Origin: Neptunomonas concharum
GTDB taxonomy: Bacteria; Pseudomonadota; Gammaproteobacteria; Pseudomonadales; Balneatricaceae
Assembly: GCF_008630635.1 (NCBI RefSeq)
Contig: NZ_CP043869.1
Span: forward strand, 1,860,001-1,924,000
DNA: 64,000 nt
Direction: 5' to 3'
Made by a program: the position numbers and the translations under genes. The notes under the pieces are model-generated. The model was not told the DNA's origin and ran no database searches. It saw nothing but the letters and a program-made list of their open reading frames with translations. Positions 7,041 to 25,092 of the stretch are shown piece after piece; position 1 is the stretch's first letter, and each line of letters opens with the position of its first letter.

Positions 7041-7233
7041 ACTAAAGCCAAAGCGTTGTCGCACTGGCCCATAAGTTGGGGCATGCTGTGTATTTTATGC
7101 TTAAGCAGGAGAAGGTGTTCGATAAGAGCAAGTTTTTAGCGAGTTAGTCACGCAACGAGGTGAGGTGAACGTCTAACTTTGAATAGGACAGCCGATGAAG
7201 TCTAGTGCCCCTGATATTATTGAAGGCTCATAT
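7041..7233 (+). mobile_element. 3' fragment of an IS1111-type (IS110 family) element
   Basis: From AAAGCCAAAGCG to a TAG at 7144-7146 the sequence aligns with the last 33 codons of the intact transposase at 22025-23032, with one frame slip near 7060. After the stop, blocks match the intact element's 3' region: GGTGAACGTCTAAC, CCGATGAA-GTCTAGTGCCCCTG, and the right end GGCTCATATG. The stretches between these blocks, which in the intact copy hold most of the putative bridge RNA, are deleted. The fragment ends against GTTATGC, an attC-type core. It is dead and marks the left border of the accessory island. Confidence 0.8.
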
Positions 7234-7240
7234 GTTATGC
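7234..7240. repeat. attC-type core half-site left of parDE
   Basis: GTTATGC directly abuts the right end of the IS1111-type fragment, as GTTAGGC does at 23499 beside the intact copy. The other half of this attC has been lost. Weak on its own; the parallel with the intact insertion carries the call. Confidence 0.45.
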
Positions 7241-7302
7241 GCCTTGTATCTAGGCCTAAATAGTACCACAATTAGGTATATTTTGGTATTGGGAGCTATA
7301 TT

Positions 7303-7545
7303 ATGGCTAAGAACACTAGTATTACCTTGGGTGACCATTTTGACGGTTTTGTTACTAATCAAATCCAAAGCGGTCGCTATAGCTCTGCAAGTGAAGTCAT
7401 TCGTTCCGCTTTACGTTTACTTGAAATCCAAGAAACTAAAATGAACACCTTACGCCAATTGCTTGTTGAGGGTGAAGAAAGTGGAATTACGGATTATGAC
7501 CTTGACTCGTTTATCAATGAGTTAGATAGCGAAGAGAGAAAATGA
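7303..7545 (+). CDS. parD: ParD-family antitoxin
   Basis: An 80-residue antitoxin of the CopG/Arc/MetJ ribbon-helix-helix type. The N-terminal strand SITLGDHFDGFV is followed by the diagnostic SGRYSSASEVIRSALRLLE; the acidic C-terminus (VEGEESGITDYDLDSFINEL) is the usual toxin-wrapping tail. The ATG has GGGAG 8 bases upstream. It overlaps the toxin gene by ATGA (7542-7545), so the two are translationally coupled. Repeated TTAGGTAT / TTTGGTATT words just upstream (about 7274-7292) could be the ParD operator. The pair lies in an integron-type cassette and would stabilise the array. Confidence 0.93.
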   Translation: MAKNTSITLGDHFDGFVTNQIQSGRYSSASEVIRSALRLLEIQETKMNTLRQLLVEGEESGITDYDLDSFINELDSEERK

Positions 7546-7853
7546 CACCATTTCAATTAACTAACAAGGCGAAGTCTGATTTAAGAGATATAGCCTTGTT
7601 TACCTTTAGACGCTGGGGTCGTGAACAGCGAAATATTTACCTAAAACAGTTTGATGACTCATTTTGGCTATTAGCCGAAAACCCTGACATTGGTAAAGCC
7701 TGTGACGAGATTCGCGATGGATACAGAAAATTCCCACAAGGAAGCCACCTAATATTTTATCGTCAGACCGGCAGTCAAAATATTGAGATTATCCGTATCC
7801 TCCACAAAAGCATGGATGTGAATCCAATTTTTGGCGCTGTAACGACCGCGTAA
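7542..7853 (+). CDS. parE: ParE-family toxin
   Basis: A 103-residue RelE/ParE-superfamily toxin: LTNKAKSDLRDIALFTFRRWG at the N-terminus, FDDSFWLLAENPDIGKACDEIRDGYRKFPQGSHLIFYR in the core and IEIIRILHKSMD at the end match ParE closely. ParE toxins act on DNA gyrase; RelE-type catalytic residues are absent, which supports ParE. The start overlaps parD by four bases. The pair is complete and probably functional. It is encoded against the prevailing (minus) direction of the cassette array, as is common for toxin-antitoxin cassettes that carry their own promoter. Confidence 0.93.
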   Translation: MTPFQLTNKAKSDLRDIALFTFRRWGREQRNIYLKQFDDSFWLLAENPDIGKACDEIRDGYRKFPQGSHLIFYRQTGSQNIEIIRILHKSMDVNPIFGAVTTA

Positions 7854-7891
7854 TAGGTGCGAGATTGCGAGCATCCTAATTGACGCGTTTG
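7838..7891 (-). repeat. attC half-site interrupted by an IS end
   Basis: After the parE stop the sequence CGCGTAATAGGTGC can pair imperfectly with GCATCCTAATTGACGCG around a short loop, and it ends GTTTG exactly at the left end of the next IS1111-type fragment (ATACTCATTGAGCC at 7892). The intact copy has the same junction (ACTTG then ATACTCATTGAGCC). This looks like one side of an attC split by the IS; the sequence has diverged. Confidence 0.5.
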
Positions 7892-8366
7892 ATACTCATT
7901 GAGCCTTCTCCCCAGCCTAGCCAGATTGACTAAGCTGAAAGGCAACCAAACCAAAAAGGAGAAGACCCAATGAACTTTTACAATAGCACTCATCGTCATT
8001 ATTGTGGAGTCGATTTGCATGCTCGTAGCTTGTATGTCTGTATCCTCAATCAGCAGAGTGAAACCTTGTTGCACAAGGAAATTCCTACCAGTCCTGATGC
8101 TCTCATCGCCTGATCCAACCCTATCTGGATGACCTGATCGTGGGTGTTGAATGCATGCATTGCTGGTACTAGGTAGCTGACTTCTGTGAAGAGCAAGGCA
8201 TTACTTTTATTCTCGGTCACGCCTTATACATGAAAGCAATTCACGGCGGTAAAACCAAGAATGACCGGATAGATTCCCACAAAATAGCGGCATTGATCAG
8301 GGGCGGTAACTTTCCTTTGGCTTATGTGTATCCCAAAAGCATGCGAGCTACGCGTGATCTGCTTCA
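7892..8366 (+). mobile_element. 5' fragment of an IS1111-type element with broken transposase
   Basis: The left end ATACTCATTGAGCCTTCTCC, the 80-base leader and the ATG at 7970 all match the intact element at 21946. The transposase starts MNFYNSTHRHYCGVDLHARS, then hits TGA after PTSPDALIA; a shift restores LIQPYLDDLIVGVECMHCWY, where a second stop (TAG) follows, and homology runs on to RATRDLL, ending about 8366. So there are two lesions plus loss of the 3' two-thirds. This copy keeps about 14 codons (HKEIPTSPDALIA region) that are missing from the longer 'intact' copy. Confidence 0.88.
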
Positions 8367-8404
8367 TGATGAAAGATGAAATAAATGCGAGTACCTGTAC
8401 TAGG

Positions 8405-21866: not shown

Positions 21867-21884
21867 AACTTCCTTGGGGTTCTA

Positions 21885-21945
21885 ACGCTTTGCTCACCGA
21901 TAAATTACGAGCGCAGCGAGTAATTTATCGGTGAGCAGCAACTTG
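21885..21945 (-). repeat. attC 3' part, split from its core by the IS
   Basis: On the minus strand CAAGTTGCTGCTCACCGATA through a 20-plus-base stem (CTCACCGATAAATTAC against GTAATTTATCGGTGAG, perfect) to AAAGCGTTAGAAC. The 5' core GCCTAAC of the same attC lies at 23505-23499, on the far side of the IS1111-type element. The stem is one of the longest perfect inverted repeats in the window. Confidence 0.85.
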
Positions 21946-22024
21946 ATACTCATTGAGCCTTCTCCCTCAGCTTAGACAGATTGACTAAGTTGAAAGGCGA
22001 CGAAACCAAAAAGGAGAAGACCCA

Positions 22025-23032
22025 ATGAGATTTTATACTACACAACATCCGTACTATTGTGGAATAGATTTACATGCACGATCCTTGTACGTCTGCATTC
22101 TGGATGATACCGATGAACCCTTGCTGGACTTATTAACGCCCTATATCGGCAATATTGTTGTCGGTGTTGAATGCATGCATTGCTGGTACTGGGTTAGCGA
22201 TTTCTGTACTAAACATAACATCGACTTTATTCTGGGTCACGCGCTTTACATGAAGGCTATCCATGGCGGTAAAGCCAAAAATGACCGCATTGACTCCTAT
22301 AAAATCGCTCACCTTATCCGTGGCGGCAATTTCCCATTGGCCTATGTGTATCCACCCGAGATGCGTGCTGCTCGTGACTTACTCCGTCGTCGTACACGTA
22401 TCGTTCGTCATGGTGCCAATTTAAAAGCGCATGCAAAAAACACCACCAGCCAATACAATTTTCCACCGAATAATCTAGATCTAAAATACCCTTGCGCTCG
22501 GGAAGCGATGCGAAACTGCTTTGATGATGAGTTCGTGCAACGCAGTATTGATCTGGACTTAGACATCATCGCGTTTTACCGCCATGAACTCAGCTCAATC
22601 GAGTGCTTTATTGAAAAACATGCCAAGCATCACAACGGCCGAGATTACCACATCCTGACCAGCTTTCCCGGCATTGGCCGTTTTTTAGCGCTAACGATCC
22701 TTTACGAAGTCGGTGACATTGGCCGTTTTAGCACGGTACAGGACTTTGCGTCGTACAGTCGGCTTATCAAGTGTAAAGCGGAATCAGCAGGCAAGAGCTA
22801 CGGCACCCAAGGCAATAAAATTGGAAATGCCCACCTAAAATGGGCCTTTGGCGAAATTGCGGTGCTGTACCTACGTGGTAACGACAAAGCAAAAAACTAC
22901 CTGTTAAAACTACAAAAACGCATGAGCAAAGCCAAAGCGCTCTCCGCCCTGGCGCATAAAATTGGTCGCTGCGTGTACTACATGCTGAAAAATCAAAAGG
23001 TGTTTGATGAAAAACGTTTCCTAGCCAGTTAA
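22025..23032 (+). CDS. tnpA: IS1111-type transposase (DEDD recombinase)
   Basis: A 335-residue IS110-family recombinase. The RuvC-like domain has the acidic tetrad Asp15 (CGIDLHA), Glu49 (VVGVECMHCW), Asp87 and Asp90 (KNDRIDSYKIA). The C-terminal Tnp domain has SFPGIGRFLALTILYEVGD and the serine-bearing AESAGKSYG region, followed by KAKALSALAHKIGRCVYYML. Compared with the broken copy at 7892 (and the usual family form) about 14 residues are missing between EPLL and LLTPY in the RuvC-like domain, in frame; whether this protein is active is therefore uncertain. Ribosome site AAGGAGAAG precedes ATG 22025. Confidence 0.93.
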   Translation: MRFYTTQHPYYCGIDLHARSLYVCILDDTDEPLLDLLTPYIGNIVVGVECMHCWYWVSDFCTKHNIDFILGHALYMKAIHGGKAKNDRIDSYKIAHLIRGGNFPLAYVYPPEMRAARDLLRRRTRIVRHGANLKAHAKNTTSQYNFPPNNLDLKYPCAREAMRNCFDDEFVQRSIDLDLDIIAFYRHELSSIECFIEKHAKHHNGRDYHILTSFPGIGRFLALTILYEVGDIGRFSTVQDFASYSRLIKCKAESAGKSYGTQGNKIGNAHLKWAFGEIAVLYLRGNDKAKNYLLKLQKRMSKAKALSALAHKIGRCVYYMLKNQKVFDEKRFLAS

Positions 23033-23039
23033 GTCGCGG

Positions 23040-23460
23040 GGCAAGGTGAGCTGAACGTCTAACTGGAACACCCTGGCTGATGCTCAAATGAAGATTGGGT
23101 TACCCTTTGCACATAAGCTGAATCACCTATCTTCTAGCACACTGTCGTAGCCTGAGCGCTTTGATTAGACACCTTGCCGCCGCGCACTACCATCAGCAAG
23201 ATGGTTTGCACCTGTGCTGAGCCTGAAACTAACTGGCTTTAAGCCCGACGCCTTGAATAGTGCCAGTAACGGGTTAACCGATGAATGTCTGGTGCCCCTG
23301 CTATCAGTACGGAAGCTGAAATCAGCAGGCGCTCATTGAGCATGAGATAAGAGAGCCCCGATATGTGTTTGTTGCAGGCTATCGCTTGGCAACCATGATG
23401 ACAGATGAAGCAGTCTATCTTGCTGATGGATAACAGACTGGCCGCTAACGCGGCCAGAAG
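23040..23460 (+). ncRNA. Candidate bridge RNA of the IS1111-type element
   Basis: IS1111-group elements encode their guide RNA downstream of the transposase. Here the 3' region contains CTCATTGAGC (23332-23341), identical to the element's left end (21949-21958); ATATGTGTT (23361-23369), identical to the right-end junction (23493-23501); and TGAGCGCTTTGATTAGAC (23153-23170), which differs from the attC at 23966-23982 only by one extra base and one substitution. A strong hairpin CTGGCCGC/GCGGCCAG (23438-23457) may be its 3' end. Boundaries are approximate; the RNA is inferred from sequence alone. Confidence 0.55.
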
Positions 23461-23498
23461 AGCGGTTTTATCTATTGACTCCGGAGAGGCTCATATGT

Positions 23499-23505
23499 GT
23501 TAGGC
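23499..23505 (-). repeat. attC core on the right side of the IS
   Basis: GTTAGGC on the plus strand is the GCCTAAC (RYYYAAC) 5' core of the DUF2188 cassette's attC in cassette orientation; its other arm is at 21885-21945. The IS sits directly beside it. Confidence 0.75.
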
Positions 23506-23612: not shown

Positions 23613-23843
23613 ATGTCTAAAGACGACTACAACGTATACCAAGATAGCGATGGAACATGGAAAGGAAAACGCGAAGATGCGAGCCGTGCCAGCGTAACGG
23701 GTTCAACTCAAAAAGAAGTTTTTGAAAGAACTAGAGAGTTAGCGCAAAAAGCTCAATCTGAAATTTCAATTCATCGTGGTGATAACGGTAAAATCCGAGC
23801 TAAACACAGTTACGGAAATGATCCGAAGAGCACCAAAGGATAA
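23613..23843 (+). CDS. DUF2188 protein (cassette gene, inverted)
   Basis: A 76-residue protein: YNVYQDSDGTWKGKREDASRAS, then VFERTRELAQKAQSEISIHRGDNGKIRAKHSYGNDP. The W-x-x-K, the helix with AxxxA spacing, and the IHRxDGKI(R)-xxxSYGNDP ending are the DUF2188 signature, a small alpha-beta protein common in cassettes and plasmids. Function unknown. The ATG has GAGG 8 bases upstream. It is encoded on the plus strand, opposite to the other cassette genes, so it probably has its own promoter in the 100 bases before it (AATACTGTATAGATACCC around 23529). Confidence 0.85.
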   Translation: MSKDDYNVYQDSDGTWKGKREDASRASVTGSTQKEVFERTRELAQKAQSEISIHRGDNGKIRAKHSYGNDPKSTKG

Positions 23844-23883: not shown

Positions 23884-23982
23884 GCCTAACGCTGAGCTAA
23901 CCGGCAGCCAGTGCGAAGCACGCTTTTGGCTGTCCGACGGAGGCCGTTTGCGGCCGGAGTGTAGTTGAGCGCTTTGTTAGGC
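23884..23982 (-). repeat. Integron attC site
   Basis: On the minus strand GCCTAACAAAGCGCTCAAC ... GGTTAGCTCAGCGTTAGGC. It has the full RYYYAAC and GTTRRRY cores and the asymmetry (AACAAAGCGCTCAA / AGCTCAGCGTT) of a canonical attC, with a long variable stem holding CGGCCGCAAACGGCC and CCAAAAGCGTGCTTCGCACTGG. Length 99 bases. It terminates the 125-residue cassette gene. This is the best-preserved attC in the window and fixes the array's direction as right to left. Confidence 0.93.
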
Positions 23983-24608: not shown

Positions 24609-25083
24609 ATGCGAAAGTATAAGTCAGATTTATTAGAGTCTGTCCGTCGGGCAATCATGGTCAGGCATTATAGTATCCGTACTGAACAGGCTTATATCCA
24701 CTGGATTCGCAGATATATCTTCTTTATTAATAAACAACATCCTAGTACCTGTGGGCTAAAGAAGTTGAGGATTTCTTAACTTCGTTGGCGGTTGATAAAA
24801 AAGTCGCCTCAAGTACTCAGAATCAAGCTTTAAATGCATTGGTTTTTTTGTACCGGGAGGTTCTCAAACAACCTTTCGAGTACCAAGTTGATGCCATTCG
24901 TTCAACAAAACCTAAAAAGATTCCGGTTGTCCTCTCTCGTCATGAAGTTAAGTCCGTATTAGCTCAGCTCAAAGATACTCATTGATTGATGGCCGCTCTA
25001 CTCTACGGCTCGGGGCTTAGGCTAATGGAGTATGTTAGGTTAAGAGTTAAAGATTTGGATTTTAATTACCGCGCGATTACTGT
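24609..25083 (+). pseudogene. intI: Integron integrase, inactivated and truncated
   Basis: Begins MRKYKSDLLESVRRAIMVRHYSIRTEQAYIHWIRRYI, the IntI N-terminal core-binding domain. A one-base slip near 24756 shifts the frame; the second frame reads AKEVEDFLTSLAVDKKVASSTQNQALNALVFLYREVLKQPF, then KPKKIPVVLSRHEVKSVLAQL. At 24983-24985 TGA replaces the Trp of THWLMA. After it [34 protein letters not shown] still holds the box I Arg, but the remaining 160-170 residues (box II HxxR and Tyr) are gone at the paaY junction. Three independent lesions make it certainly dead. ATG with GGAG upstream. Confidence 0.92.
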
Positions 25084-25092
25084 TCGCTCAGT

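What the first reader, a model, noticed from the sequence alone, without database searches (positions are those of the whole stretch)
21946..23505. IS1111-type element inserted in an attC, with segments in its 3' region that match its own ends and the attC
The 3' non-coding region carries CTCATTGAGC (identical to the left end), ATATGTGTT (identical to the right-end junction) and TGAGCGCTTTGATTAGAC (near-identical to a real attC at 23966-23982). IS110-family recombinases are known to use a bridge RNA with donor and target guide loops, and IS1111-group elements place it 3' of the gene. Finding all three guide-like segments in order target-donor here suggests a bridge RNA programmed for attC. The precise loops are inference.
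Basis: partly seen in the sequence, partly recalled or inferred. Interest (0 to 1): 0.75.

Follow-up and report, generated by a model that had tools for sequence, protein, structure and literature searches.

The report
RNA-guided jumping element hitting attC
This is a mobile DNA element that inserts at one precise point in the attC sites of gene-capturing integrons, almost certainly guided by an RNA it encodes itself; it belongs to a large, little-noticed lineage found mostly in aquatic bacteria that is distinct from the known attC-hitting elements' family.

Summary
The element (21946-23499) is real: an intact IS110-family transposase plus a 467-nt 3' non-coding region, inserted cleanly in an attC. 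Uninterrupted relatives of the same attC read straight through the junction.

About 100 distinct insertions of relatives share the same ends, and nearly all sit at the same attC point, YTTG^TTR, the gene-proximal R'' end.

The 3' region encodes a structured RNA. A 16-pair stem set is 97.6% paired across 46 relatives, with 151 double-sided changes against 38 in shuffles. It closes an internal loop whose two strands are the target guides.

The left guide (23154-23163) tracks each element's own left flank (p<1e-4). It matches its own, different right flank in sister lineages. AUAUGUG (23361-23367) tracks the right end.

The "TTAGAC" half of its attC match does not vary with the target.

RNA-guided attC targeting is known (ISKpn4, ISPst6). 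What is new is a separate, deeply diverged lineage with a larger two-domain RNA. No expression or activity was tested.

The parts
21946..23499 (+). complete IS110-family element (limits ambiguous by a 2-bp TG shared by both junctions)
   Evidence: empty-site comparison; conserved ends in about 100 relatives
21946..21965 (+). left end ATACTCATTGAGCCTTCTCC, containing the left sub-terminal inverted repeat TGAGCC(TTCTCC)
   Evidence: conserved across relatives
22025..23032 (+). transposase, 335 aa; DEDD residues D15, E49, D87, D90 and serine S254 conserved in the clade
   Evidence: Pfam PF01548 and PF02371; NCBIfam NF033542 183 bits; residue check
23035..23048 (+). 5' strand of stem P1 closing the target-binding domain; pairs with 23170-23184
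   Evidence: covariation
23057..23063 (+). right target guide GUCUAAC; pairs 7/7 (one G-U) with top strand G-TTAGGC at the right flank
   Evidence: position on the 5' side of the internal loop; matches own right flank in other lineages; keeps the RYYYAAC consensus in the clade
23154..23163 (+). left target guide GAGCGCUUUG; perfect match to the neighbouring attC; pairs 8 of 9 (two G-U) with its present flank
   Evidence: unbiased scan and permutation test
23170..23184 (+). 3' strand of stem P1
23190..23429 (+). second RNA domain: multi-branched, closed by stem 23190-23209 with 23410-23429, containing the donor guides
   Evidence: RNAalifold on 56 sequences
23210..23274 (+). arm resembling the target-binding loop (UGAGCCUGAA..CUAACUGG..YUUGAAUAG); role unknown
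   Evidence: sequence and structure comparison
23281..23289 (+). tentative right donor guide AUGAAUGUC (partial pairing with the left end)
   Evidence: inference; covariation inconclusive
23361..23367 (+). left donor guide AUAUGUG, identical to the right end
   Evidence: nearly invariant in the clade; co-changes with the right end in three other lineage groups
23475..23480 (+). -35-like TTGACT that would make a promoter with GATACT across the circle junction
   Evidence: sequence; TTGAC conserved in relatives; promoter function inferred
23483..23499 (+). right end GGAGAGGCTCATATGTG with the right sub-terminal inverted repeat
21881..21945 (-). body of the interrupted attC (hairpin and R' end); its R'' remainder is 23500-23505 TTAGGC
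   Evidence: orientation from intI and cassette genes
23884..23982 (-). neighbouring uninterrupted attC whose R'' side matches the left guide 10/10

Best explanation
It is an intact insertion sequence of a distinct IS110-superfamily lineage. The transposase and the 3' region are presumably transcribed together, from a promoter formed when the ends join in a circle (inferred). The 3' region gives a two-domain guide (bridge) RNA of about 400 nt (structure shown by covariation; production inferred). Domain 1 is an internal loop carrying two guides. GUCUAAC pairs with the top strand right of the cut (G-TTRRRY, the R'' box of attC). NNNGCYUUG pairs with the bottom strand left of the cut. Domain 2 carries AUAUGUG, which pairs with the right end of the circle junction, and probably a guide for the left end. 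The DEDD/serine recombinase then exchanges strands at a shared TG core, placing the element at RYYYAA^CAAR of attC, antisense to the cassette genes. Target choice by the RNA is well supported; the catalytic steps rest on the known IS621, ISEc11 and ISKpn4 work.
For: (1) Same ends and target point in the clade: TTG in 102 of 104 distinct left flanks, TTR in 68 of 73 right flanks. (2) Ten uninterrupted relatives of this attC read directly through the junction. (3) RNA structure: 97.6% of cells paired, 151 double changes against 38 +/- 7 shuffled; slid controls 28-45% paired. (4) A scan of all RNA columns against all flank positions puts flank -4 with 23160 first, -5 with 23159 third, and -6 with 23158 also in register. 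Permutation p<1e-4 overall and <5e-4 for each of -4, -5, -6. (5) Right guide pairs 7/7 (G-U allowed) with its own right flank in the window element, a Nitrospirota plasmid element, L095, L117 and L159, which have four different right flanks. (6) Donor guide matches its own right end 7/7 in the window clade, L091, Manganitrophus and L095/L117. (7) Catalytic residues intact.
Against: No RNA, circle or transposition was measured. The window element's left guide mismatches its present site at -5 and pairs by wobble at -4 and -6, although it fits the attC next door perfectly. Within the clade the right guide cannot be tested by covariation because the target half is nearly invariant. L128 and L129 show imperfect donor-guide matches (5/7). 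The right donor guide is weak. Permutation tests do not fully remove shared ancestry. The lineage strings were picked by eye at homologous anchors.
Confidence: 0.9

Rival explanations
1. The transposase itself recognises the folded attC hairpin or its conserved R''/L'' boxes, and the RNA is only structural or serves other steps.
For: The flanks share more than the guide covers (A at -9, T at -12, CC at -17/-16), which is general attC consensus. The window element's own guide fits its present site imperfectly.
Against: Individual guide bases track individual flank bases at -4, -5 and -6. Sister elements with non-attC targets carry matching guides at the same RNA position.
Confidence: 0.06
2. 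It is simply a member of the known IS1111-attC group (ISKpn4, ISPst6, ISPa21, ISPa25) with nothing lineage-specific.
For: Same target class, 3' non-coding region and guide order as described for that group (PMC11187229).
Against: Transposase 17% identical to IS5075, an IS1111 reference, and on a separate branch. Different active-site neighbourhood (RL..C...ESAG, not GL-P----S/TG). About 14 bp rather than 10 bp between the repeats. No ISKpn4-like hit is apparent among plasmids at E<1e-5 (40 of 89 records listed). The ISKpn4 sequence itself could not be obtained.
Confidence: 0.15
3. The segments the reader saw are chance or repeat artefacts.
For: True for CTCATTGAGC.
Against: The other two segments are conserved and co-change with their DNA partners.
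Confidence: 0.02

Closest known systems
IS1111-attC group (ISKpn4, ISPst6, ISPa25; seekRNA, Siddiquee et al. 2024, PMC11187229)
   Same: Attack one end of attC; RNA from the 3' non-coding region; top-strand complement lies 5' of the bottom-strand match; no target duplication.
   Different: Window clade is far from IS1111 proper (17% to IS5075); RNA about 400 nt in two domains against 82-86 nt short (ISKpn4, ISPst6) and 145-170 nt long forms; longer spacing outside the repeats; motif ESAG.
ISGsu4-type IS110 elements (L159, L095, L117)
   Same: Sister group of the transposase (support 99/97); right and left target guides and donor guide at homologous RNA places.
   Different: Non-attC targets (TCAACG, TCCCC, ACCCC right flanks); different right end (ATGGGTG).
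IS621 bridge RNA system (Durrant et al. 2024, PMC11208160)
   Same: Internal loop with left and right target guides on opposite strands, donor guides, shared 2-bp core, DEDD plus serine recombinase.
   Different: IS621 RNA is 5' of the gene and in the opposite guide order; only weak sequence similarity (E 1e-4).

Membership tests
IS110 family (RNA-guided DEDD transposase) | DEDD RuvC domain plus Transposase_20 domain | tested here: met
   PF01548, PF02371; NF033542 183 bits over cut-off 140; D15, E49, D87, D90, S254
IS110 family (RNA-guided DEDD transposase) | structured guide RNA with target and donor guides | tested here: met
   (sequence evidence only; expression not tested)
IS1111 group | long non-coding region downstream of the transposase gene | tested here: met
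   467 nt downstream of the stop, 79 nt upstream of the start
IS1111 group | right (top-strand) guide 5' of left guide | tested here: met
   23057-23063 before 23154-23163
IS1111 group | sub-terminal inverted repeats of 11-13 bp with 7-bp and 3-bp outer extensions | tested here: not met
   about 11 bp with one gap here but only 6-7 bp in most relatives; 14 bp between repeats in the joined ends instead of 10
IS1111 group | transposase related along its length to IS1111; GL-P----S/TG motif | tested here: not met
   17% to IS5075, separate branch; RL..C...ESAG
IS1111-attC group (ISKpn4/ISPst6) | insertion at one fixed point and orientation in attC | tested here: met
IS1111-attC group (ISKpn4/ISPst6) | transposase clusters with ISKpn4, ISPst6, ISPa25 | not testable with these tools
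   their sequences could not be retrieved; indirect evidence points against

The most novel reading that the evidence does not exclude
RNA-guided attC parasitism arose at least twice in the IS110 superfamily. The window element represents an independent, widespread lineage (mostly aquatic gammaproteobacteria, also Nitrospirota plasmids) with an enlarged two-domain guide RNA that contains a second, target-loop-like arm. Its guide drifts with host attC sequences, while sister lineages are retargeted to other sites by guide replacement.
Probability: 0.65. Interest if true: 0.6.

Novelty: new variant of a known kind. Interest (0 to 1): 0.48.

Why it matters
Integrons spread adaptive and resistance genes; elements that plug attC at R'' should freeze or alter cassettes. 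A large natural set of elements with one target class and varying guides gives a ready evolutionary experiment on guide-target rules for bridge RNAs, and a divergent starting point for programmable recombinases. A 2022 survey of Shewanella integrons reported IS110 elements in arrays but no IS interrupting attC (PMC9229058), yet Shewanella members here do sit in attC, so the lineage seems to have been overlooked.

Tried and rejected
Rfam scan of the window: no family at threshold. Reading TTAGAC after the left guide as a target guide: rejected, because it is constant whatever the right flank. Reading the variable NCCNNAGCC stretch (23144-23152) as right guide: no correlation with right flanks. 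CTCATTGAGC as donor guide: not conserved. Testing the right donor guide against left-end variants: confounded by ancestry, inconclusive. Finding ISKpn4 through plasmids pKPN4 and pKPN5: absent from the stretches viewed. Automated attC scan of the window with strict arms: too strict, found none. Inverted-repeat test of all left flanks: significant in only a quarter, because attC arms are imperfect. The genome search cannot be centred on a locus handle.

Full report
The element. The window holds an intact 335-aa transposase (22025-23032) with the IS110-family domains. The catalytic DEDD residues and a C-terminal serine are conserved in the clade. Its limits follow from empty sites. Ten relatives of the same attC, including the estX cassette attC of a class 1 integron, read ...GCAACTTG|TTA... 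(or a close variant) without interruption, where the window reads ...GCAACTTG|ATACTC...CATATGTG|TTAGGC. There is no duplication; a shared TG at both junctions leaves a 2-bp ambiguity, as expected for a core dinucleotide.

Which end of attC. In the class 1 integron the integrase lies to the right of the equivalent site, and the insertion point is between the cassette gene and the attC body. An integrase pseudogene lies at 24630-25090 in the window, giving the same geometry. The target is therefore R'' (RYYYAA^CAAR), not the R' end where cassettes recombine, and the element is antisense to the cassettes. In the window the interrupted attC is the second from the integrase remnant (sequence).

Clade. 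Eighty loci of 64-95% identity, plus members found in other searches, share these ends. Among 104 distinct left flanks, 102 have T, 104 T and 104 G at -3 to -1, and 68 of 73 right flanks start TTR. The remaining left-flank consensus (CC at -17/-16, T at -12, A at -9) fits the L''-R'' side of attC. Distant members (45-55%) include plasmid elements of Candidatus Manganitrophus (Nitrospirota), again at CTTTG^TT.

RNA structure. RNAalifold on 56 non-redundant 3' regions gives two domains. In the formal test on 46 sequences, 97.6% of cells pair against 79.4% in shuffles and 28-45% when slid. There are 151 cells with changes on both sides against 38, and a covariation score of 0.64 against 0.25. Domain 1 is a long stem closing an internal loop. 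Its 5' side holds GUCUAAC (23057-23063) and its 3' side GAGCGCUUUG (23154-23163). Domain 2 (23190-23429) is multi-branched and contains AUAUGUG (23361-23367).

Left target guide. I compared every variable RNA column with every flank position. The best hit of the whole scan was flank -4 with 23160; -5 with 23159 was third and -6 with 23158 also in register. Permuting flanks among elements gives p<1e-4 for the block, also when each distinct guide is counted once. Positions -3 to -1 are invariant on both sides.

Right target guide. Inside the clade the target half is nearly constant, so covariation is silent there; the guide keeps the R'' consensus RYYYAAC. Across lineages it is not silent. The seven bases just 5' of the conserved (C)UGG pair with the element's own right flank 7 of 7 (G-U allowed) in the window element, Manganitrophus L097, L095, L117 and L159. 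The right flanks are TTAGGC, TTAGGC, TCCCCT, ACCCCG and TCAACG respectively. Swapped combinations with other targets pair 0-5 of 7 by Watson-Crick rules. L117 also has an 8/8 left guide.

Donor guide. AUAUGUG is nearly invariant in the clade and identical to the right end. Where the right end differs (ATAGATG in L091, ATAAGTG in Manganitrophus, ATGGGTG in L095, L117 and L159) the RNA differs in the same way. L128 and L129 are imperfect. The right donor guide is only tentative.

CTCATTGAGC is one arm of a hairpin present only in close relatives. The TTAGAC half of the attC-like segment is constant whatever the target. The true right guide lies upstream. The window element's left guide fits the uninterrupted attC at 23884-23982 perfectly, but its present site only with two wobbles and one mismatch.

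Placement. By layout and guide order the element works like IS1111 elements, for which an attC-directed seekRNA is experimentally established (ISKpn4, ISPst6; PMC11187229). By sequence it is not IS1111 proper: 17% to IS5075, a separate branch, sister to ISGsu4-type elements, with different spacing and motif. Independent origin of attC targeting is therefore likely but not proven, because ISKpn4 itself could not be compared and long branches limit the tree.

Limits. No expression, circle or movement data exist here. The cross-lineage guides were located by inspection at homologous anchors. The permutation tests do not model phylogeny fully.

Noticed in passing
window about 7046-8370; left end at about 7892: Decayed relic of the same element family, also after an attC-like flank (..GCGTTTG^ATACTC). 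A same-genus genome (L116) has the same left flank, so the insertion is old.
   Followed up: partly
own genome 1721120-1721637: Second decayed copy outside the window, flank less clearly attC.
   Followed up: no
window 24630-25090: Integron integrase pseudogene (frameshift and internal stop) beside the cassette array.
   Followed up: partly
window 23613-23843: Cassette whose only gene (DUF2188) is reversed relative to the array.
   Followed up: no
window 21881-21945: attC 88% identical to the estX cassette attC; 627 plasmid records matched the longer query, apparently nearly all through this attC, so the cassette pool overlaps with class 1 integrons.
   Followed up: partly
window 23210-23274: RNA arm that looks like a second copy of the target-binding loop, with its own variable stretch before YUUGAAUAG. 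No flank correlation found.
   Followed up: partly
L096, L097: attC-type elements on Candidatus Manganitrophus plasmids at the same site but with different left guides (GATGCATTG and TGTGCTTTG).
   Followed up: partly
L105 and L080: Identical flanks show that the same-genus genome G359 is Neptunomonas japonica, so the window's host is probably a Neptunomonas.
   Followed up: no
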